This document shows positions 1,967 through 19,199 of a stretch of DNA of 21,515 nucleotides, piece by piece. Location of the stretch: the IMG/VR virus record IMGVR_UViG_3300038418_000118, positions 1 to 21,515 of that record; one strand, 5' to 3'. The notes below the pieces were generated by a model. That model did not search any database. It worked only from the letters and a program-made list of their open reading frames with translations, and was not told the DNA's origin. How positions within the stretch are numbered: position 1 is the first letter of the stretch; every line of letters starts with the position of its first letter. The position numbers were made by a program, and so were the translations under genes. Source of the stretch: a virus.

Positions 1967-2173
1967 ATGAAGCATGTTAAGGTCGTCTTCTATGGATTAA
2001 TTGCTGACATCCCCGAAGAAGGGGTAGAAGCGACGGGCGAGCTTATGGTGCTGCCCTTCTCATCTGGCGAACCGCCCTACTACAGAAAGGAAGCAGACGG
2101 CACTATCACGTTTCTCGATTGGGTCGCTATACTTGAGACTTGTTCTGACGACGAAGACGATGATGCTAAGTAA
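1967..2173 (+). CDS. Small protein of unknown function with acidic tail
   Basis: A 68-residue frame with a beta-rich body and a strongly acidic C-terminus (CSDDEDDDAK). The start is supported by a TATA box (1933-1940) at the spacing seen elsewhere, implying a leaderless transcript. It is divergent from TerL. Its last 94 bases overlap, in antisense, the end of the HNH gene on the other strand, an arrangement probably created when that gene was inserted. I do not recognise the family. The promoter and clean codon structure make it a likely real gene, but no function can be assigned. Confidence 0.65.
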   Translation: MKHVKVVFYGLIADIPEEGVEATGELMVLPFSSGEPPYYRKEADGTITFLDWVAILETCSDDEDDDAK

Positions 2174-2586
2174 CTCTCTATTTTTGTCTTTAGTTTCTCA
2201 TCCTCAAAAAGATGAAGTCTTGTATTACAAAGTTGACATAGAATACCTCTAAAACGACCAGTTTTATGGTTGTGGTCGGAAGCGTATCCATGAGGAGTTC
2301 TTTTTAAGATTCGACCACAGAGAGCACATAATCCATTTTGTTTTTGCCATGTTGTCTCAAATTCTTCAAGAGTTATTCCGATTCGATATTCCAAATTTCG
2401 TTTTTTATTGTAAAGGCTTTGGGCCTCACGATGACTCTCTCTCCATCTGCGTGCAGTCTCATTAAGTTTTTCGCTATTAATTTGGTGATATTCCTTCATG
2501 TAGTCTTTTTTCTTTTCTTTGTTGATGGGATTTGCAATCCATCTCTTCCATTCCAATTTCCTATTTTTTGGGTCTTTGTAAGGCAT
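2080..2586 (-). CDS. HNH endonuclease, endonuclease VII-like
   Basis: The 168 residues have a basic, helical N-terminus (1-60), then a zinc-bound HNH core of the recombination endonuclease VII type: CALC at 87-90, DHNHKTG at 104-110, RG at 113-114, and CQLCN at 117-121. The four cysteines bind structural zinc and D104/H105 and N121 lie in the beta-beta-alpha-metal active site. Such genes in viruses are usually free-standing homing endonucleases, or more rarely junction resolvases. The domain should end near residue 140. Residues 139-168 (low-complexity SSSSSS, then a neutral tail) are antisense to the 68-aa gene and are probably read-through. G+C in four 60-base lines I counted is about 35%, below its neighbours, which suggests transfer. 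It has its own TATA box at 2611-2618. Confidence 0.88.
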   Translation of the reverse strand: MPYKDPKNRKLEWKRWIANPINKEKKKDYMKEYHQINSEKLNETARRWRESHREAQSLYNKKRNLEYRIGITLEEFETTWQKQNGLCALCGRILKRTPHGYASDHNHKTGRFRGILCQLCNTRLHLFEDEKLKTKIESYLASSSSSSEQVSSIATQSRNVIVPSASFL

Positions 2587-5334: not shown

Positions 5335-5838
5335 ATGGAAACTTGTAATGTTTGTGGTGTTGTTCTAACGAAACAAAATTTCCTTTCTTCAAGGGCGAAG
5401 CGGCACGATTACATTTGTATTTTATGTGGTAGAGCAAGAGCCAAAACGAATTACTATAAGAATCGTGACCATGTTCATACACAAAAGAAAATATGGTATA
5501 AAGCGAACCAAGGACGAAAGACTAAGTTTGAGCGTGAGAAGTATGCTCGGCTTAAGTTTGAAGTTCTTCTCCACTATACTCAAGTTTTTGACCCTACTGC
5601 TACAAGTCCTCATTGTAATGACCCTTTCCATAAACACCTACCCAATGACCCTCTTGCCAAAGACATTCGGGCACTCTCAATAGACCATATCAATGGTGGC
5701 GGAAACAAACATCTTAAAGAAATTGGTCAAGGCAAACTCTATTCGTGGCTCAAGAAGCATAACTATCCCCCTGGCTATCAGGTGCTTTGCATGAGTTGTC
5801 AATTCATCAAGCGGTCAGAAATGAGTGAAACACATTGA
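5335..5838 (+). CDS. HNH endonuclease with N-terminal zinc finger
   Basis: The 167 residues begin with a zinc finger (C4, C7, C28, C31), continue through a basic helical linker with many Lys and Arg (about 35-75), and end in an HNH core. The core has SIDHINGGGNKH (115-126), a YSWLKKHNYPPGYQVLC segment and CMSC (152-155). This arrangement is common in free-standing HNH homing endonucleases of tailed viruses, and it is unrelated to the endonuclease VII-like gene of this window. G+C in three lines I counted is about 37%, below the surrounding genes, which suggests insertion between the ERCC4 nuclease and the acetyltransferase. ATG 5335 is chosen over 5329 from the TATA spacing. Its stop overlaps the next gene's TTG start. 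Confidence 0.88.
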   Translation: METCNVCGVVLTKQNFLSSRAKRHDYICILCGRARAKTNYYKNRDHVHTQKKIWYKANQGRKTKFEREKYARLKFEVLLHYTQVFDPTATSPHCNDPFHKHLPNDPLAKDIRALSIDHINGGGNKHLKEIGQGKLYSWLKKHNYPPGYQVLCMSCQFIKRSEMSETH

Positions 5839-6287
5839 GTCTTTCAATTCAACGGGCACAACGAAAGGACTTGGACGCTATCATCGCTCTCAATGAGGCA
5901 AGTATGCCTGAACATTATAAATTGCAGTTTTGGAACTTCCATCTCGACTACTTTTGGGATGTGTTTCTCGCGGCCAAGTTAGATGATAAAGTTGTGGGCT
6001 ACGTTATGTGCCATGCAGAGACGATTCACCATGTTCGTGCAGGAATCATAATATCGCTGGCTGTGGCTCCAGAGCACAAGCGAGAAGGCATCGGCAAAGA
6101 GCTTATGCAGAACGTTCAGAGGATATTTCGCATGAAGGGCATTCCACTGGTCGCTCTTCAAGTGAGAAAGAGCAACGTAGACGCGATACGCTTTTATGAA
6201 GGACTGGGGTATCAAACAGAGATGATGTTGCCTGGTTACTACACCGAGCCTACCGAAGATGGCTGGCTGATGAGTCGCGTCCTGTAG
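5835..6287 (+). CDS. GNAT acetyltransferase, RimI-like
   Basis: The 150 residues form one GNAT domain that transfers an acetyl group from acetyl-CoA. Motif A is LAVAPEHKREGIGKELM (about 75-91), with the R/QxxGxG pyrophosphate loop as KREGIG. Motif B is LQVRKSNVDAIRFYEGLGYQ (108-127), which is typical of RimI/Ard1 enzymes that modify protein N-termini. The start is a TTG at 5835 sharing TTGA with the HNH stop. No promoter is visible, so it depends on the HNH transcript or on read-through from the nuclease operon. In a virus it could modify a virion or host protein. The substrate is unknown. Confidence 0.88.
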   Translation: MSLSIQRAQRKDLDAIIALNEASMPEHYKLQFWNFHLDYFWDVFLAAKLDDKVVGYVMCHAETIHHVRAGIIISLAVAPEHKREGIGKELMQNVQRIFRMKGIPLVALQVRKSNVDAIRFYEGLGYQTEMMLPGYYTEPTEDGWLMSRVL

Positions 6288-6332: not shown

Positions 6333-7346
6333 ATGGTAACGACCTTTTCACCTATAGCCGCAGGCTGGAGAGCCGCAGTGGGCTGGTATCCAGAGGCAAC
6401 CTATGGGACGGCAGTGCCGAGTGTTCAATACCATTGGGTTGGGGCAGTGCAAAGCATGAAGGCAACAATAGATAAGCAACCTATTCTAGTCTACAGAATG
6501 GATGGCAGCACCGACTTTCCTGCCTATCTTCTGAAAGGAGTAAGGAATGTAGACTTCAGTATTACCTATTGGCCTCAAGACATCGCTCTTCTGCTTGACG
6601 ATATTAACAACATCGGACTCAGCACGGTCTCTCACACTTTCATTATCGAAGATTTTGACACAACCAACACTTACACAATCACAGGGGCAGTGGCTAACAC
6701 TGTAACGATTACTGGTAAGACAGCCAACGCACTCGAAGTTACAATCACCTACTGGTGTCAAAATATTATTTGGGGCACTGGTGTCGCTGGCCTTCCTGTT
6801 GGTGTGACCTTTAGTGCTGACCCTCTCAATACGCCCTTCTTCTTCTCACAAGAGAGCGTTCAGATTCCGTCTGGAACACCACAGGTGCAGGCTTTGACCT
6901 TTACTGGCACTATTACCAACAACCTATACCGCGTGCCTCAATTTGGGACAGACGTTATCAGAAGCGTGCCGACTCTAACACGAAAGGCCGAAGGAACTCT
7001 TACAGCTACCTTTGCTTCAATAAATGATGTGCCGAATGAGAGAAATGTGCCGTATGAATATACGGCTGTTAGAACCACACCTTATTTAGACCCTGAACAA
7101 CTGTTGACACCTCCTACTCCGTCTGGTCTCTCTCAACAGACTATTCGTTTGATTCTTGGACTTCAAGGTGCTGGAGCCAACTATCCACCTACCCCTGCTG
7201 TTGGCACTGTTTTCTACTTGGATTACGCAGGTGCAGTGTTGCCCAAGATAGACCTCACTGTTCCAATTTCTGACCTTGTTGCTGTAGAGTTGCCTTGGAC
7301 TGCTACTAACGCTACAGTAGCGTCTCACGCTCCTCCTGCTCCATAA
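6333..7346 (+). CDS. Probable tail tube protein
   Basis: The 337-residue, beta-rich protein opens with a segment typical of major tail proteins (WYPEATYGTAVPSVQYHWVG, about 18-37), followed by a strand pattern (QSMKATIDKQPILVYRMDG) and repeated Thr-rich strands. Tail tube subunits stack as hexameric rings around the DNA channel. Its position, just before the chaperone and tape measure genes, is that of the tube gene in long-tailed viruses. A Pro/Ala-rich C-terminus (SHAPPAP) ends in tandem stops TAATAG. No sheath gene lies next to it, which points to a non-contractile tail, although one could lie outside the window. The fold is inferred from composition and position. Confidence 0.65.
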   Translation: MVTTFSPIAAGWRAAVGWYPEATYGTAVPSVQYHWVGAVQSMKATIDKQPILVYRMDGSTDFPAYLLKGVRNVDFSITYWPQDIALLLDDINNIGLSTVSHTFIIEDFDTTNTYTITGAVANTVTITGKTANALEVTITYWCQNIIWGTGVAGLPVGVTFSADPLNTPFFFSQESVQIPSGTPQVQALTFTGTITNNLYRVPQFGTDVIRSVPTLTRKAEGTLTATFASINDVPNERNVPYEYTAVRTTPYLDPEQLLTPPTPSGLSQQTIRLILGLQGAGANYPPTPAVGTVFYLDYAGAVLPKIDLTVPISDLVAVELPWTATNATVASHAPPAP

Positions 7347-7381: not shown

Positions 7382-7420
7382 GGCATGCTTACTACCCTAC
7401 GAAGTGGAGATGAAAAACAA

Positions 7421-7759
7421 ATGAGTGACAACAAGTTAATGGGACTGACGGCAATTGCTCTGGTAGTGCTAGGAGCCTTCGTTATTGGGATAGAGGCAGG
7501 ACTGGGACTTGGCTTCATAGAGGTCGGAACCTTTGGACTTATAGTGACGTGGGGTATAGCCATCGCCTATGGTATGAAAGGCCATGAGGAAAGGATGAGC
7601 CTCTACAGAGAGATGGGAAGAATCGCAAGTGAAAGAGGTGAGATTATGCCTACTGTTGCTGAAATAATGAGAGACTATCCCTACCAGAATGTTGTGTATG
7701 GCACCGCCGCCAGCGAAGTCATGAACCTCAGAAATGAGGAAAGGGAACGAGAGAGATAA
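7421..7759 (+). CDS. Two-helix membrane protein within the tail cluster
   Basis: The 112 residues have two hydrophobic helices (about 7-25 and 32-50) joined by a short glycine-rich turn, then a charged, helical C-terminal domain ending NEERERER. An in-frame ATG at 7385 would lie upstream of the predicted transcript start, so ATG 7421, with GGAG at 7407-7410, is preferred. It lies between the tail tube and chaperone genes and has its own promoter. Two helices and a charged tail resemble some holins, which would open the host membrane at lysis. A membrane-inserted virion protein is equally possible. No homologue is recognised. Confidence 0.7.
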   Translation: MSDNKLMGLTAIALVVLGAFVIGIEAGLGLGFIEVGTFGLIVTWGIAIAYGMKGHEERMSLYREMGRIASERGEIMPTVAEIMRDYPYQNVVYGTAASEVMNLRNEERERER

Positions 7760-7767
7760 GGTAAATA

Positions 7768-7775
7768 CTTAAATA
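7768..7775 (+). promoter_or_regulatory. TATA box of the tail chaperone gene
   Basis: CTTAAATA followed by GCC is centred 26.5 nt before the ATG at 7798, predicting a leaderless mRNA for the tail assembly chaperone. Confidence 0.7.
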
Positions 7776-7797
7776 GCCTCTTACTCCTCTACTGCCT

Positions 7798-8118
7798 ATG
7801 ACTACCGAGACTAAGACTCTAGTGGTTAGGGGCGTGACTTACACCATCAAACGCTTTGGTCTTAAAGAGGGTGCTTTCGTAGATGGACTTATTGAAGCGG
7901 CCAAAGACCTTGAAAGGAAGCAAGCTATTTCTGTGTTCTATGGAACAGTCAAACCTAAGTTCGAGTCCGTTGAAGCGATAGAAGAGGGAGATAGGGAAAT
8001 AGGTCTCCATCTATGGATTGAGATAAACAGATTCAACCGATACGAAACCAGTTTTTTATCGCTCTTAAAGAACTCACCCTCACAGGTGTTACCACAAGAA
8101 GAGACCAAGAAACAGTAA
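7798..8118 (+). CDS. Tail assembly chaperone, short (zero-frame) product
   Basis: The 106-residue zero-frame product corresponds in position to lambda gpG: after the tail tube and just before the tape measure. It starts with a beta segment (TLVVRGVTYTIKRFG) and is otherwise helical, as in other chaperones of this type. The slippery site sits at codons 86-87, so the last 19 residues belong only to the unshifted form. The long form is listed separately. The protein is expected to coat the tape measure protein during tail assembly and not to be part of the finished tail. Confidence 0.75.
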   Translation: MTTETKTLVVRGVTYTIKRFGLKEGAFVDGLIEAAKDLERKQAISVFYGTVKPKFESVEAIEEGDREIGLHLWIEINRFNRYETSFLSLLKNSPSQVLPQEETKKQ

Positions 8119-8339
8119 ACAGAGCTAAGGCCGTTCTCAGCAAGTATAACGAGTATGCTATTCTGAAGACCCTTCAAGACCAGTTGGGCATCCCTAGAGA
8201 GGAAGCTCTTCAGATGAGTGCTCTTGAAGTCAGAGAGTTGCTTTTAGCTCATGACTTCGCTATTGAGGCTGAGAAGAGGAGACTTGAGAAGGAGCGTAAG
8301 AAAGCGGCTCAGGCGAAAGGGTTAAAAGGGGAGATGTAG
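7798..8339 (+). CDS. Tail assembly chaperone, -1 frameshift fusion (G-T type)
   Basis: If the ribosome slips back one base at 8052-8058, translation continues from codon 8058 in the -1 frame: IALKELTLTGVTTRRDQE..., ending AKGLKGEM at TAG 8337-8339. This gives 87 + 93 = 180 residues. The extension is highly charged and helical (AIEAEKRRLEKERKKAAQ), as in the T domain of lambda gpG-T. The -1 frame has no start near the overlap, has sensible composition, and exactly fills the space before the tape measure gene. The arrangement is conserved in many long-tailed phages. The frame and site are seen directly; that the shift happens is inferred. Confidence 0.85.
8052..8058 (+). promoter_or_regulatory. 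-1 ribosomal frameshift slippery site T TTT TTA
   Basis: The heptamer TTTTTTA is phased exactly as X XXY YYZ in the zero frame: AGT(8050-52) TTT TTA. After a -1 slip both tRNAs can re-pair (TTT and TTT). A weak hairpin, CACC 8075-8078 with GGTG 8085-8088, lies 16 nt downstream. It is small and rather far, so I do not count it as a proven stimulator. Confidence 0.85.
8321..8328 (+). promoter_or_regulatory. Possible TATA box before the tape measure gene
   Basis: GTTAAAAG, inside the end of the chaperone extension, is centred 29.5 nt before the ATG at 8354. The match is weaker than the other boxes, so co-transcription from 7768 is also possible. Confidence 0.4.
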
Positions 8340-8353
8340 CCTTATAGAGTGAT

Positions 8354-9280
8354 ATGTCAAGGGAAGAGAAACCTAATCCTCTTGTGGAAAATGCGCAAGC
8401 AGCTAAACAAGCTCTGCTTCTCAGTGGAGACTTAGCGGCTCTGAACGAAGCCGTTGAAGCAAATGTTATATCGGTTAAAGAGTATTCTGAAGCACTGCAC
8501 GGTCTTACTTCAAATGAAACTACTGCTATACAGGGAGTGAAAAACTTTTCTACTATTATAAACAGTTGGCGAACCATTTTCAATGCCACAGCAGACCTAG
8601 TGGCTGGTAACATTGATGAATTGGTGAATTTGTATAATGCTCAAATCAACGTCATTCAGACTCAGAATAAATACACACAAGCACTTGCTTTGCAGGCAAC
8701 AGCCGTCAACATCTATGGTAAAGGCTCGGAACAGGCAACAAGAGCGACTACAGCCGCAAGTTATGTTGGTGCTCTTTACACTCAGTCTAAGAAGAATGAG
8801 ACAGTAGCCATGAATGATTACGTTACAGCAACAGCTTCAAATGTTGCAAAAATCGCCTCGTCTATTACTGACGTTGTGACTTCTATGAACTTGTTTGACA
8901 TTGCTTTGGGTGCTGTAGCCTTGTCATCTGCTGAAGGTGCTGCACAGATGGCACTTGCAGCCATTCCAATTGTTGGTGGCATCGCCGCGTTAGGAATTGG
9001 AGCATATCAATTGGCTACGACTCCTCATATTGCAGCACCTGGGATGCAGAGTGGTGGCTATGTTCCTAGAACTGGTCAATATACGCTCCATGCTGGTGAG
9101 ACTGTAATTCCAAAAGCTGAGACAAGTGGTGGGACAGGTATTGGTGTAGGCGCACCAAATGTTGAGATTCACATTCATGCTACAAGCAACGTAGACTTGG
9201 CGAGAGTGAGACAAGAAGTGGAGACTGCTTTGGCCAAGACTCTTCTAGCATCACAGAGACAGAGAGGGGTGTATGGATAA
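8354..9280 (+). CDS. Tail tape measure protein (short)
   Basis: The 308 residues are Ala-rich and helical up to about 190. A hydrophobic segment follows (about 178-222, with MALAAIPIVGGIAALGIGAY), then the C-terminal signature of many tape measure proteins, QSGGYVPRTGQYTLHAGETVIP (about 232-253), and a short beta/helix end. Tape measure proteins set tail length, extend through the tube lumen, and are ejected at infection. At the usual relation of about 0.15 nm per residue, the tail would be only about 46 nm long. The position right after the frameshifted chaperone supports the call. Its stop overlaps the next ATG by one base (TAATG), so translation is coupled to the hub gene. Confidence 0.88.
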   Translation: MSREEKPNPLVENAQAAKQALLLSGDLAALNEAVEANVISVKEYSEALHGLTSNETTAIQGVKNFSTIINSWRTIFNATADLVAGNIDELVNLYNAQINVIQTQNKYTQALALQATAVNIYGKGSEQATRATTAASYVGALYTQSKKNETVAMNDYVTATASNVAKIASSITDVVTSMNLFDIALGAVALSSAEGAAQMALAAIPIVGGIAALGIGAYQLATTPHIAAPGMQSGGYVPRTGQYTLHAGETVIPKAETSGGTGIGVGAPNVEIHIHATSNVDLARVRQEVETALAKTLLASQRQRGVYG

Positions 9281-12255
9281 TGTCTAACACTATTAACTAT
9301 GTGGTCACATACAATTCAGACATCAATACCCTGCCTAGTCCGACCTATCTTTCTCCTATCAAAAACATTACACTTCAACGCAACATAGCACCTTCTGAAG
9401 ACAACGCGACTATCACTCTTGGTGGAATACAGAAGATTGATTCAGCCAGAGAGGTCTACTTCTATCGTGTTAACTCAGACGGAACTTATACTCTCAAGTT
9501 TAGAGGGATGACCACCAATCCAACGTATCACGTTGCAGACGACGGACTTGTTACCTCTGTTCAGATTAACAGTCTGTGGTATATGCTTCAGACCAGACTC
9601 TTCCAAATTGCAGGAAAGAGTCCACCGCCGCTTCAGCCCAACACCAATCCCTATTTGGTTTATCTTAATCCGACGTTGGGATTGGACTTTGGAATGATTT
9701 GGGCAGACATCCTTGTAAACGCATTTCAAGAGTCCTATTCTACTGGGCATCTTCCTCCACTTCATTTAGCCAACATAAACGACGATGGGTCGGGAAATAT
9801 GAACATAGGTGTAGAACCGCCTTACCTTACTGACTTTGACCCTACTGTAGTAAATGACAACATGAATATTCAGTATCAGTCTATCTCTGCTGTGGTAGAT
9901 AGATTGGTAACATCTGCTCTGTTCAACGCTGGCCAAGGTTCTCCTTTTCTCGCAGAGTATAGAATGAACATAGGAGACTATCCGACTCCCCTTCCTTCTA
10001 TTCCTCATCCTGAGTTTGTCACACCCAAGCTACCAACCGCAACGGTAATGCTTTTTGACCCTGTTCATGGTAAATTAGGTAATGGTAACAATAGAACGGG
10101 AGTAACTATAGGAGACTTTGCCACGCAAATCGACCCTGCGGGAACGCTTCCTGCTAGTCTTGCATTTCCAATGGCCTATGTGGAATTTGGTGTAACAAAT
10201 GGGTATCTACCTATAGACACTATCATCTTCTCAGAAGGCGACAACATAGTTTCAATTGACCTCACCTACGACTATTTGGTGATGAACAACAGTTATGTCC
10301 TTTCTGGTGGGAGTTTTCAGGGGTCGGATGTGGTCGCTCTGCCTATAGACAATCAAAGAAGCATTGCTGAATATGGATTGAAGCAGACCAACCAACCGCT
10401 CTCTAACGTGGTAGACCAAGGAGAGATTAAACGCTTTGTTGGGACGAGCATTAACTTCTTCCAGCACCCTATTCCAAATATCGTGATAAAGCCCGACTAC
10501 GTTTACGCAAGCACGCACATACTGTATGCTGGCGATTATATAATGGTGAACGCTCCAAGTCTTGCTGGAGTATTGGAAGATAGCAACGGTAATCCTTTGA
10601 TTGCTTATCAAGCTGCGACAGCCGCTTTTACCGCTAGAATCAAGACCATAGATATAACGTGGAATCCAACAGATGGCGAAGACATTACGCTTACATTGAC
10701 CTTTCCAGTTCAGAACGTTCCAATAGCAGAGTGGAATGCTGCTCATAACACTCAACAGTTGGGGTCGCCTGGTGGCGCAATACAGTCCATGTATACTGTA
10801 GTCGAGCCAGCCGCTAAGACTATGCTAGGAAGGGGAAGACAAGCAGAAGGAGCAGCCACACATCAGAGTGGTGGAGATTTCCTTACTAACAGAAATAATC
10901 CTACCACTGTAGTTGTTACAGATACAGGAACGACAGATAACGTAACTCCAGACGTAGGATTTTTGGAGCTTCCGATTTTTGCACAACACATACCCAATAA
11001 CATGGATGCAATAAATTGGGATGGAAGTTCAGTAAAAGGAGACGATATTCTTATCTACCAGTTTGGTGTTGAAGTTGATACACCAGACACTGCACCGAGC
11101 AATACCGCTTCTGCACCAAGCAACGTCTATCTCACCGTTATTCAGCCCGATGGAATGGCTATAATTGACACGATAGTTGACATCAATCAGTTAACCAACA
11201 TTCTTTCACTTATTTCCAAATCTCATGAACGTCCACCTTTGCCACCTCCAGGGACACCTCCTTTGTCAGCTCCTTTGCTCACTGATGAGGCTAGAAGTGT
11301 CAATCTGAGTGGAAGATACCAAATCATAGTCCGTAACTCAAAGGCGTTTGTTTGGTGTCCAAATCCGCTATTCCAAACTCCGTCTCTTCTTTCTCCGCCA
11401 AGTGCTATACCTAATACTGCTGGTTTTGTGGGTTATTCTTACATCATCACGCCCTGTATTGATGCGGCTGGAGACTATCCATTTGGCATGTCATACTGGA
11501 CATGGATAACCAGTGCAACCATCGGTGTGGGTGGTCACAATGTTGCTCTAACATGGAATATTGTAAGCGGGGCAGGGAGTTACAATATCTATCGCCAAGA
11601 CAGCATACTTACTCCAGACGATATATTGCGCTATGGAAAGGTAGGCACGTCAGTTGTAAATTCGTTTACAGATAGCATAGCTATTCCTACTGCGGGACTT
11701 CAGCCCTATCCGCCGTTTGTTACACAAACACTCACTCCTGCGGCTGTTGGTGGAAGTATTGTCGTTAATCAAACCTATTGGTATGTTGTAACTGCTGTCA
11801 ATTCGGCAGGAAACGAAACTGTGTGTTCAGCCGCAGGTGCTTATGACCATACAGGCACTATAGATACCGAGCCGCCAGTCAATCCAGTAGCCCTTTACAT
11901 AGAGTGGCCTACAGTGCCACAAGCCGTGAGTTACAATATCTACAGAGGAGACGGCCCTGCTGCTTATACTCTAGCCACCCTTTGGCAACTACAGACTAGC
12001 ATATTTGATACCAATTTTACAGATGACGGAAGTATTACGCCATCTTCTACTACACACCCTCCTTCCGAGATGGAGACAGAAACCAGAGTAGGTTCCAACG
12101 CCTATACTATCTATGCCAACCACTCCTTTCTACAAGACCCTGCCAACACCCAAACTGCCTCTGGTGGTGGGACTAACAATCCTAGCACTGCCATTGTATA
12201 CGACCCTACCCAACGGAGAGTGTATCAGACTTACGGATATGTGGCTCCCTTCTAA
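9280..12255 (+). CDS. Tail hub / tip protein with fibronectin-like domains
   Basis: The 991 residues begin with a hub-like region (about 1-520). It includes strands of the kind seen in baseplate hub or late-control-D proteins (FRGMTTNPTYHVADDG, then NSLWYMLQTRLF). A Pro-rich linker (PPLPPPGTPPL, near 652-662) precedes two fibronectin type III-like domains, marked by repeated SYNIYR at 767-772 and 884-889, 117 residues apart. The DNA for this repeat is identical over 15 bases (11577-11591 and 11928-11942), which suggests domain duplication. The C-terminus is low in charge and ends in a short Tyr-rich strand. It probably closes the tail tip and carries host-contact domains. Order after the tape measure gene fits the hub. 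The start is fixed by TAATG overlap. Confidence 0.75.
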   Translation: MSNTINYVVTYNSDINTLPSPTYLSPIKNITLQRNIAPSEDNATITLGGIQKIDSAREVYFYRVNSDGTYTLKFRGMTTNPTYHVADDGLVTSVQINSLWYMLQTRLFQIAGKSPPPLQPNTNPYLVYLNPTLGLDFGMIWADILVNAFQESYSTGHLPPLHLANINDDGSGNMNIGVEPPYLTDFDPTVVNDNMNIQYQSISAVVDRLVTSALFNAGQGSPFLAEYRMNIGDYPTPLPSIPHPEFVTPKLPTATVMLFDPVHGKLGNGNNRTGVTIGDFATQIDPAGTLPASLAFPMAYVEFGVTNGYLPIDTIIFSEGDNIVSIDLTYDYLVMNNSYVLSGGSFQGSDVVALPIDNQRSIAEYGLKQTNQPLSNVVDQGEIKRFVGTSINFFQHPIPNIVIKPDYVYASTHILYAGDYIMVNAPSLAGVLEDSNGNPLIAYQAATAAFTARIKTIDITWNPTDGEDITLTLTFPVQNVPIAEWNAAHNTQQLGSPGGAIQSMYTVVEPAAKTMLGRGRQAEGAATHQSGGDFLTNRNNPTTVVVTDTGTTDNVTPDVGFLELPIFAQHIPNNMDAINWDGSSVKGDDILIYQFGVEVDTPDTAPSNTASAPSNVYLTVIQPDGMAIIDTIVDINQLTNILSLISKSHERPPLPPPGTPPLSAPLLTDEARSVNLSGRYQIIVRNSKAFVWCPNPLFQTPSLLSPPSAIPNTAGFVGYSYIITPCIDAAGDYPFGMSYWTWITSATIGVGGHNVALTWNIVSGAGSYNIYRQDSILTPDDILRYGKVGTSVVNSFTDSIAIPTAGLQPYPPFVTQTLTPAAVGGSIVVNQTYWYVVTAVNSAGNETVCSAAGAYDHTGTIDTEPPVNPVALYIEWPTVPQAVSYNIYRGDGPAAYTLATLWQLQTSIFDTNFTDDGSITPSSTTHPPSEMETETRVGSNAYTIYANHSFLQDPANTQTASGGGTNNPSTAIVYDPTQRRVYQTYGYVAPF

Positions 12256-16674: not shown

Positions 16675-18804
16675 CTACCACTCCAACTTCTCCTGACCCT
16701 CTCCAGCGACCATCTGTTTCTTATACTTTTGTATCACCTCGATTAGCCCAAGCCGATACATGATAGGGTCAACTTGATGGGAAATATACCACCCGTAATC
16801 GACCTCTTCAGGCTTTACTAAGTTCATCAGCTTCGGTATACCGCCTCTGGTCATTATGAAGCTTACAACTCCATACTTGACCATCTCTGTCGGAACCCAA
16901 CCTGTCGCTACCGCGTCCTTGTAGGCTCTGACATGAGGCGGGGTAGGCATCCGTCTCTCCTTTCCATTCTTATCCTTCTTCATCAAACCATAAGACTCGG
17001 CAGGACGCGGCATGTGTTTCTCAATCACCAACAGAGGGTCATACAATCCTTTGTAAAGGTTGACCTTGGTTGTCTCGTAGAAGTCCAACATCTTCTCTTT
17101 CGGAACCTTTGAGACCTGCATCTTCTTTATGGCCTCTTGGAGATTCTTCGCCAACTCAGTCCAGTCGCCTCTCAGGGTCTCCATTCCTGCCTCTTCAAAC
17201 TTGTCAACTACTTGCTTGGTCTTGTCGATGTGGACTATACCGTAATACTTCTTCTTCGCCTTCTCACCTTTTGCACTCCTTGGGAAACCAAGCACGCTCC
17301 AATAGCTCTCGAACCCGAACTTGATGTTGGTCACGTTGTAGGTCTGCTCTACGAAGTTGTTTATCAACGGGAGAATCGTATCAACGTCTTCCATCTTCCC
17401 ATGAACGAATATCGAGTCGGTATCATCGTAGTAGACAATGTAGCCCAAGCTCTTCAGAAACTCGGCTGTATGGGTCAGGATGTCTCTGCCGTGAAAACAG
17501 GTGCTGTCTGACACGTCTACCGCCTTGAAGCGGTAGTAGGTGCTTGCGAAGAGACCATAGACCGCGTTAATTGCAATTTTGTAGGCCCACCTTTCTACCT
17601 TATCTTTTGCGTTTCTTTTGCCACTGAGCAACTCTAGGATTATAGGTTCCACTATCTTGAACTTGCCCAACGGGGCCAGCTTATAGGCTAGGATTACGTT
17701 GGGGTATAGGGAGTCAACGTCGAACTGGAGCACGTCGTCGAAGAAGCCTCTCTCATAGATGTCAACCCATCCGCCAGTATACTTGGGTCTCTTGTTGTAG
17801 GCCGTCTTGCATGGAAGCACATATCCAATAGTGTGAGCAGTTCTGAGAAAGTATTGGTCGAGCACTGGTGTAACTGTGATAGTCTTCTTCTCTGGATGAA
17901 CCCCGAAGATTTGGTCAGGGAAGATGTGTCCCTGCTTGGCCAGTTGGATTGCTACTTTGCTATAGTCCTTCGGTGCGCCAGTCATAAGATTGTTGGCTGA
18001 GTCTATCATCTCGGTCATCTCCGCGTCCCACAGCACACGCTCCCTTAGTTGAGCATCTGGCAAGGTGCTAAGTCTGACGTTGACGAATGGCTTCTTCTCA
18101 TTGAAAAACCTCTTGCCTACCTTCCCCAAAGACCACTGGCTTCTGAAGTTCTTCTCCATGAAGCGGTAGGCGAGAGACACGTCCAGAAACCTAGTCTGTG
18201 CAAAGTCGAACTTGATGTGGTTGTAGGCCAGCCTCTTAGAGAAGAACGGGACATCCCACTCTCGGCTGTTCCAGCCCTTCATTAGAGCTATCTTGTTCTC
18301 CTTAATGAAGGTGGTGGCATCTTGCAAGAGCTTGGGTTCTGGCCCTGTCCATGCGTGCTTCTCTCCCTTATAGACGATTCCGATAGCCGTGATGGGAACG
18401 TTGGCCGTCTCCGCACTTGGCTGCCCCTGACTGTCATCTTCTTCAGTATCCCACGCCGCTTGGTTGGGATAGTCGTCACACACATAAAGGTTGTCCAACA
18501 TCCAAACGCCCACATACTTCTTATCGGCCTCGTAGACCGTAATGCTCTTGGCCTCTTGTCTGGTGCGGAAGTCTTTCACGTTGGTCGGCTGATTGAAGGT
18601 GTATCTCTTAACGTTCTCTTCTGTATCGAAGGCATTGAAGTTGGTTCGCTCCATCTTAGCCATCGTCTGGATTTCGTATTTCGCTGGCGCGTAGCAGTAA
18701 GGGGCAGGGAAGGGGTCGATAAGCTCGAACTCTCCGCCTCTATATACTCTCATCCTTACTTTGTTGTTCTCGATAACGTAGTTGGCTGAATCGAAAGGAA
18801 TCAT
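16675..18804 (-). CDS. polB: Family B DNA polymerase with proofreading exonuclease domain
   Basis: The 709 residues replicate the viral genome. Exonuclease motifs are WDTE (118-121), GWNSREWDVP (177-186, D184) and LWDAEM (258-263, D260). The linker motif YTGG follows at 342-345. Polymerase motif A is DVDSLYPNV (362-370), motif B is K409...NAVYG (413-417), and motif C is YYDDTDS (458-464). The thumb carries TPPHVRAYKDA. Motifs A and B are only about 45 residues apart, roughly half the spacing of cellular archaeal PolB, so the fingers are short. The Tyr usual in ExoIII (YxxxD) appears to be Arg. An ATG at 18834 exists, but ATG 18804 overlaps the upstream stop as ATGA and is preferred. There is no terminal-protein (TPR) insertion, so it is not clearly protein-primed. 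Confidence 0.95.
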   Translation of the reverse strand: MIPFDSANYVIENNKVRMRVYRGGEFELIDPFPAPYCYAPAKYEIQTMAKMERTNFNAFDTEENVKRYTFNQPTNVKDFRTRQEAKSITVYEADKKYVGVWMLDNLYVCDDYPNQAAWDTEEDDSQGQPSAETANVPITAIGIVYKGEKHAWTGPEPKLLQDATTFIKENKIALMKGWNSREWDVPFFSKRLAYNHIKFDFAQTRFLDVSLAYRFMEKNFRSQWSLGKVGKRFFNEKKPFVNVRLSTLPDAQLRERVLWDAEMTEMIDSANNLMTGAPKDYSKVAIQLAKQGHIFPDQIFGVHPEKKTITVTPVLDQYFLRTAHTIGYVLPCKTAYNKRPKYTGGWVDIYERGFFDDVLQFDVDSLYPNVILAYKLAPLGKFKIVEPIILELLSGKRNAKDKVERWAYKIAINAVYGLFASTYYRFKAVDVSDSTCFHGRDILTHTAEFLKSLGYIVYYDDTDSIFVHGKMEDVDTILPLINNFVEQTYNVTNIKFGFESYWSVLGFPRSAKGEKAKKKYYGIVHIDKTKQVVDKFEEAGMETLRGDWTELAKNLQEAIKKMQVSKVPKEKMLDFYETTKVNLYKGLYDPLLVIEKHMPRPAESYGLMKKDKNGKERRMPTPPHVRAYKDAVATGWVPTEMVKYGVVSFIMTRGGIPKLMNLVKPEEVDYGWYISHQVDPIMYRLGLIEVIQKYKKQMVAGEGQEKLEW

Positions 18805-19199
18805 TCTCCAATGGCACCTACGATGATGGCCCACAAATCTGGGTCAGTGTCCTTTATCCTGTCCAAGTGGGGCGGCTTGAGTCCCTGCTGCTTGGCGTAA
18901 TCGACATAGTAAACGATGCTTTCGATGGTGTCTGTCGGTTGCAACTCGTTGCACAGCTTCAAATAGGACTGCACCGCATTTAAGGCTTGCTCTCTGGTGA
19001 GCTTCAAAATGTTGGCTACATAAGGGGCAATGACGAGCCAGAGGATGCGGTGGCGACCATCCTTCACTGGCCGCAATAGGAGCTTGGCGATATACTGGTA
19101 GCCCTCACCGTTGCACAAGTTGCCCGAATACTCTACCTTCTTCTCGAACTGCTTCTTGAAGTTCTCCACGTTGAACTTCTTAAGTTCCTCTTCGTCCAT
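18801..19199 (-). CDS. Probable PriX-like primase accessory protein
   Basis: The 132 residues contain a segment RHRILWLVIAPYVANILKL, then TREQALNAVQSYLKLC (about 49-83). It resembles the core of PriX, the non-catalytic primase subunit known from Sulfolobus, whose fold is like the PriL C-terminal domain without its iron-sulfur cluster. The C-terminal part (KQQGLKPPHLDRIKD) also fits. The gene overlaps polB by four bases (ATGA), so the two are translated together. No catalytic primase is in the window; it may lie outside or come from the host. The start is backed by a TATA box at 19222-19229. I base the family call on remembered pattern only, so moderate confidence. Confidence 0.5.
   Translation of the reverse strand: MDEEELKKFNVENFKKQFEKKVEYSGNLCNGEGYQYIAKLLLRPVKDGRHRILWLVIAPYVANILKLTREQALNAVQSYLKLCNELQPTDTIESIVYYVDYAKQQGLKPPHLDRIKDTDPDLWAIIVGAIGE

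What the first reader, a model, noticed from the sequence alone, without database searches (positions are those of the whole stretch)
8052..8339. Programmed -1 frameshift in a tail assembly chaperone of a probable archaeal virus
TTTTTTA is in exact X XXY YYZ phase in the zero frame, and the -1 frame is then open for 93 codons to TAG 8337-8339, filling an interval that would otherwise hold no gene between chaperone and tape measure. The gene order matches lambda G/G-T. Frameshifting of this kind is well known in phages but thinly documented by experiment in archaea, where the surrounding promoters place this virus. No strong downstream structure is evident, so what stimulates the slip may differ.
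Basis: partly seen in the sequence, partly recalled or inferred. Interest (0 to 1): 0.75.

Follow-up and report, generated by a model that had tools for sequence, protein, structure and literature searches.

The report
Ribosomal frameshift in archaeal virus chaperone
A tailed virus of an uncultivated archaeon very probably makes two versions of a tail-building helper protein from one gene by letting some ribosomes slip back one base at a T6A site; this is a well-known phage strategy, here conserved across a virus group with no described member, on the crenarchaeal-like side of the archaea.

Summary
TTTTTTA lies at 8052-8058, in T TTT TTA phase of ORF 7798-8118, and the -1 frame runs 93 codons to TAG 8337-8339. 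IMG/VR relatives gave seven distinct sequences (55-69% fused-protein identity to the window). All keep the in-frame heptamer, a 90-97-codon -1 ORF, and a zero-frame stop exactly 57 nt past the heptamer. The phase of substitutions switches from zero-frame to -1-frame third positions at the heptamer, and same-codon conservation peaks there (0.95 observed, 0.62 expected), although TTA is only 5% of Leu codons. In four relatives a -1-frame stop ends 6 nt upstream, and no usable -1 start is conserved, so the C-terminal domain is reached by a shift at the heptamer. Weak profile and fold hits (best PDB hit: HK97 tail assembly chaperone) and position between tail tube and tape-measure-like genes support a lambda G/GT-like chaperone. 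No downstream RNA structure is supported, as reported for P2's TTTTTTG site. TATA-like boxes and PriX point to an archaeal, Thermoproteota-like host. Frameshifting itself is inferred; transcriptional slippage is not excluded. New member of a known kind: predicted -1 shifts are reported in haloarchaeal tailed viruses.

The parts
6333..7346 (+). tail tube protein
   Evidence: Pfam PF18906 Phage_tube_2, E=1.3e-13; 70-72% identical in two relatives
7762..7797 (+). leader with TATA-like element (TACTTAAATAG) upstream of the chaperone start
   Evidence: direct reading; TTTATATAG or CTTAAATAG at the same place in relatives
7798..8118 (+). zero-frame ORF, short chaperone (gpG-like), 106 aa
   Evidence: ORF; relatives; weak PHROG tail assembly chaperone hits for relatives; fold matches
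8052..8058 (+). slippery heptamer T TTT TTA
   Evidence: in phase; invariant in seven distinct sequences; peak of same-codon conservation
8058..8339 (+). -1 frame extension (gpT-like), 93 codons, stop TAG 8337-8339
   Evidence: 90-97 codons in all relatives; -1-frame substitution phase; helical model with pLDDT 82
8116..8118 (+). zero-frame stop TAA, 57 nt after the heptamer, same distance in all seven sequences
8354..9280 (+). short tape-measure-like protein, 308 aa
   Evidence: L009 homologue hits PHROG tape measure families at 5.4e-05 and 8.5e-05; conserved in all relatives

Best explanation
ORF 7798-8118 encodes a gpG-like tail assembly chaperone. At U UUU UUA (8052-8058) a minority of ribosomes, with tRNA-Phe in the P site and tRNA-Leu in the A site, slips back one base and continues in the -1 frame to 8337, giving a 180-aa GT-like fusion that adds a helical domain. 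Most ribosomes stop at 8116 and give the 106-aa form. By analogy with lambda, the short form coats the tape measure protein and the rare long form recruits tail tube subunits, so the slip rate sets their ratio. Shown here: sequence, frame and conservation. Inferred: that the slip happens, that it is ribosomal, the ratio, and the roles in tail assembly.
For: In-frame heptamer and -1 ORF. Both conserved in seven distinct sequences with an invariant 57-nt overlap. The S-to-A change in L009 (AGT to GCT) keeps the T that the heptamer needs. Same-codon conservation 0.95 against 0.62 expected in the 7-codon window at the heptamer; no other window with over 100 comparisons exceeds 0.9 except the adjacent overlapping one. 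Substitution phase switches at the heptamer. A -1-frame stop ends 6 nt upstream in four relatives, and no start is conserved near the heptamer. Gene order tube, chaperone, tape measure. Fold matches: 10 of the top 50 BFVD hits are named tail assembly chaperone or N15 GT; the best PDB match is HK97 tail assembly chaperone 2ob9.
Against: No expression data. The zero-frame structure model is poor (mean pLDDT 46), and every fold and PHROG chaperone match is individually non-significant (best E about 0.02). No stimulatory structure was found and no upstream Shine-Dalgarno-like motif is evident. T6 could also be slipped on by RNA polymerase.
Confidence: 0.85

Rival explanations
1. Transcriptional slippage: RNA polymerase adds one U (or drops two) in the T6 run, so a fraction of mRNAs encode the fusion directly.
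For: The site is a homopolymer of six T in every relative, and no relative shows a different X/Y combination that would favour a ribosomal heptamer.
Against: Only six T. The TTA codon is also fixed although it is 5% of Leu codons, as a tandem-tRNA-slip heptamer needs; polymerase slippage would not need the A, though that A is also the first base of the conserved -1 Ile codon. The known lambda-type tail chaperones shift on the ribosome (PMC5009743).
Confidence: 0.1
2. The -1 ORF is a separate gene started internally (for example TTG 8184 or ATG 8214).
For: Starts exist in the -1 frame; ATG 8214 aligns with an invariant Met in all relatives.
Against: -1-frame coding conservation begins at the heptamer, about 160 nt before that ATG; TTG 8184 is not conserved; no TATA-like box is apparent just upstream; it would not explain the invariant heptamer.
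Confidence: 0.03
3. Assembly or sequencing error in the T run splits one continuous gene.
For: Homopolymers are error-prone.
Against: The same T6 is seen in contigs from at least seven metagenomes with sequences 57-91% identical in the region downstream, and the zero-frame stop stays exactly 57 nt downstream in all.
Confidence: 0.01
4. A genuine recoded gene, but the proteins are not tail assembly chaperones.
For: Chaperone matches are weak individually.
Against: Position next to tube and tape-measure-like genes, and convergent weak evidence from three searches.
Confidence: 0.07

Closest known systems
Phage lambda gpG/gpGT
   Same: A -1 shift near the end of a small gene between the tail tube and tape measure genes gives a rare extended protein (PMC5009743).
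   Different: Lambda shifts on GGGAAAG (own knowledge); here U UUU UUA; no sequence similarity found; different domain of host.
Phage P2 E/E+E'
   Same: -1 shift at TTTTTTG, short 91 aa and long 142 aa forms, no downstream hairpin reported (PMC3091744).
   Different: Bacterial myovirus; last base G; no sequence similarity detected here.
Haloarchaeal tailed viruses HVTV-1, HCTV-1, -2, -5 (predicted -1), HSTV-2 (predicted +1)
   Same: Archaeal head-tailed viruses with predicted frameshifts in G-T (PMC5009743, PMC8211752).
   Different: Their reported sites for HCTV-1, -2, -5 are GGGAAAC, AAAAAAC, GGGAAAG; euryarchaeal hosts. Here U6A in PriX-bearing, Thermoproteota-like viruses.
HIV-1 gag-pol shift site
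   Same: Identical heptamer U UUU UUA (PMC5009743).
   Different: Eukaryotic ribosomes and a downstream stimulatory RNA structure (own knowledge); the proteins are unrelated.

Membership tests
Programmed -1 ribosomal frameshift | X XXY YYZ heptamer in zero-frame phase | tested here: met
Programmed -1 ribosomal frameshift | Conserved -1 ORF entered at the heptamer | tested here: met
Programmed -1 ribosomal frameshift | Heptamer conserved at synonymous positions | tested here: met
Programmed -1 ribosomal frameshift | Downstream stimulatory structure (frequent, not a defining requirement; reported absent at the P2 site) | tested here: not met
   z-scores -0.76 to +1.51; consensus fold -4.7 kcal/mol with little covariation
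Programmed -1 ribosomal frameshift | Fusion product actually made by ribosomes | not testable with these tools
   needs reporter, proteomics or cDNA
Tail assembly chaperone G/GT | Lies between tail tube and tape measure genes | tested here: met
   PF18906 upstream, tape-measure-like gene downstream; one small ORF intervenes
Tail assembly chaperone G/GT | Sequence or fold of known chaperones | tested here: inconclusive
   PHROG hits best E=0.027; fold hits enriched but each non-significant
Tail assembly chaperone G/GT | Short and long forms bind tape measure and tube proteins | not testable with these tools
   binding assays needed
Virus of archaea | Archaeal promoters and replication genes | tested here: met
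   TATA-like boxes upstream of about 14 of 24 starts, no shuffle control; PriX in 7 of 8 contigs, in controls only S. acidocaldarius; host species not identified

The most novel reading that the evidence does not exclude
In these viruses the slip at U UUU UUA depends on the state of the host's archaeal tRNA-Phe (wyosine-type modification at position 37, which restrains -1 slips) instead of an RNA structure, so tail protein stoichiometry is tied to host tRNA modification in Thermoproteota-like archaea.
Probability: 0.2. Interest if true: 0.65.

Novelty: new member of a known kind. Interest (0 to 1): 0.42.

Why it matters
A 2021 review counts only one demonstrated case of programmed -1 frameshifting in archaea (fucA1 of Saccharolobus solfataricus), with the haloarchaeal viruses as predictions (PMC8211752). 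This is a comparatively strong sequence case, conserved across seven distinct viral sequences with an invariant overlap, in a lineage apart from the haloarchaeal viruses. It gives a short defined cassette for testing -1 slippage on archaeal ribosomes at the heptamer HIV uses, apparently without a structural stimulator, and suggests the G/GT strategy spans bacterial and crenarchaeal-like tailed viruses.

Tried and rejected
Conserved downstream stem or pseudoknot: single-strand folds match shuffles and the consensus fold shows little covariation; a weak 6-bp element (alignment columns 10-15 with 33-38) lies in dual-coding sequence and is broken at one pair or more in some relatives. Internal start for the -1 frame: not conserved near the heptamer. 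Reinitiation at the zero-frame stop: no -1-frame start codon near it in any relative. Relatives in cellular genomes: none found. Similarity of the large tail protein 9280-12255 to described phages: none. Relatives with a different heptamer, which would separate ribosomal from transcriptional slippage: none found; the extra contigs from the terminase search do not show the site. MCM and TFIIB as archaeal markers in the related contigs: none above cut-off. The Pfam Rho_RNA_bind hit to the zero-frame ORF (E=0.01, below cut-off) and the DARPin hit of the -1 domain were treated as chance.

Full report
Observation. The window is a virus record of 21,515 bases. TTTTTTA occupies 8052-8058 in the phase AGT TTT TTA of ORF 7798-8118 (106 aa). 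The -1 frame then runs ATC GCT CTT ... for 93 codons to TAG 8337-8339. The heptamer by itself is common enough (2 found, 3.6 expected), so the case rests on phase, the open -1 frame (50 of 20,000 dinucleotide shuffles) and conservation.

Homologues. Searches with the two halves, the fusion, the tape-measure-like protein, the tail tube, the large downstream tail protein and the terminase brought in relatives on contigs from several metagenomes, three of them 105-107 kb and one 91 kb. Seven distinct sequences (window, L004, L005, L009, L016, L017, L020; near-duplicates L003 and L022) cover the site. All carry T TTT TTA in phase, a -1 ORF of 90-97 codons, and a zero-frame stop 57 nt after the heptamer. 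Fused proteins are 55-69% identical to the window. In L009 the preceding Ser codon has become Ala (AGT to GCT) yet its final T is kept.

Selection. Among same-residue comparisons the codon is identical in 95% of cases in the 7-codon window at the heptamer against 62% expected; only the adjacent overlapping window is also above 0.9 with over 100 comparisons. TTA is 5% of Leu codons in tail genes of the group, yet it is invariant here; none of 21 Phe-Leu pairs in those genes is TTT TTA. Substitutions upstream fall mostly at zero-frame third positions (88 of 178 in the last 30 nt); after the heptamer they fall mostly at -1-frame third positions (92 of 136 at +15 to +44), including inside the overlap. 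In the overlap the -1 peptide is better conserved than the zero-frame peptide (69% against 57% identity). The zero-frame stop is held by xTA codons for Val or Leu in the -1 frame, although GTA is 21% of Val and CTA plus TTA 14% of Leu codons, which hints that termination of the short form is itself selected.

Entry into the -1 frame. In L004, L016, L017 and L020 a -1-frame stop ends 6 nt before the heptamer, so no upstream start can serve. The first in-frame ATG common to all lies about 160 nt downstream, inside the conserved domain. Independent initiation is therefore a poor explanation.

Identity. The gene lies between a tail tube gene (PF18906, E=1.3e-13), with one small ORF intervening, and a short tape-measure-like gene (308 aa; the L009 homologue hits PHROG tape measure families at 5e-05 and 9e-05). 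Three of seven homologues hit PHROG 3860 tail assembly chaperone weakly (best E=0.027). The zero-frame model is poor (pLDDT 46) but shows a beta-hairpin followed by helices. Its Foldseek matches are dominated, among functionally named hits, by tail assembly chaperones including N15 GT and that of Halobacterium phage ChaoS9, and HK97 chaperone 2ob9 is the best of about 350,000 PDB chains, at a non-significant E of 0.43. The -1 domain is helical with fair confidence (pLDDT 82). I take chaperone identity as likely, not proven.

Stimulators. No downstream structure clearly exceeds shuffles in any relative (z -0.76 to +1.51) and the consensus fold is weak. A paper on P2-like phages reports the same lack of structure at the TTTTTTG site of P2 (PMC3091744), so this is not unusual for U6 sites in tail chaperones. 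U UUU UUA is the HIV-1 site and gives a heterogeneous product there (PMC5009743). Wyosine-type modification of tRNA-Phe, present in many archaea, is reported to prevent -1 frameshifting (PMC7761594); this motivates, but does not test, the novel case.

Host. Many starts have TATA-like boxes and almost none a Shine-Dalgarno motif by simple pattern (no shuffle control). PriX occurs in 7 of 8 contigs, and among 14 control genomes only in Sulfolobus acidocaldarius; one paper found PriX specific to Sulfolobales (PMC9258230). Family B polymerase, Rad51-like ATPase and ERCC4 nuclease fit an archaeal virus. The large terminase subunit is only distantly like those of bacterial phages (about 26% identity).

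Known and new. Predicted -1 frameshifts in haloarchaeal tailed viruses are in print (PMC5009743, PMC8211752). I found no report for this group, but the library holds only open-licence papers, and Pietila 2013 and Sencilo 2013 were not available. Verdict: real, well supported by comparative evidence, a new member of a known kind.

Noticed in passing
window 18801-19199 (-): PriX primase subunit gene, present in 7 of 8 related viral contigs; in controls found only in Sulfolobus acidocaldarius, although one paper reports PriX as specific to Sulfolobales. Useful host clue.
   Followed up: partly
window 7385-7759: Small ORF between the tail tube and chaperone genes with N-terminal hydrophobic segments; ORFs at the same place in most relatives share a NVVYGTAASE-like motif. 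Function unknown.
   Followed up: no
window 8354-9280: Very short tape-measure-like protein (291-353 aa in the group), which would imply a short tail if it is the ruler.
   Followed up: partly
window 8334-8356: A TATAGAGT-like motif is conserved roughly 8-16 nt before the tape-measure start in relatives, too close for a TATA box; possibly another initiation signal.
   Followed up: no
window 2080-2586 (-), 5835-6287 (+): Endonuclease VII-like and GNAT acetyltransferase genes near the terminase and tail modules.
   Followed up: no
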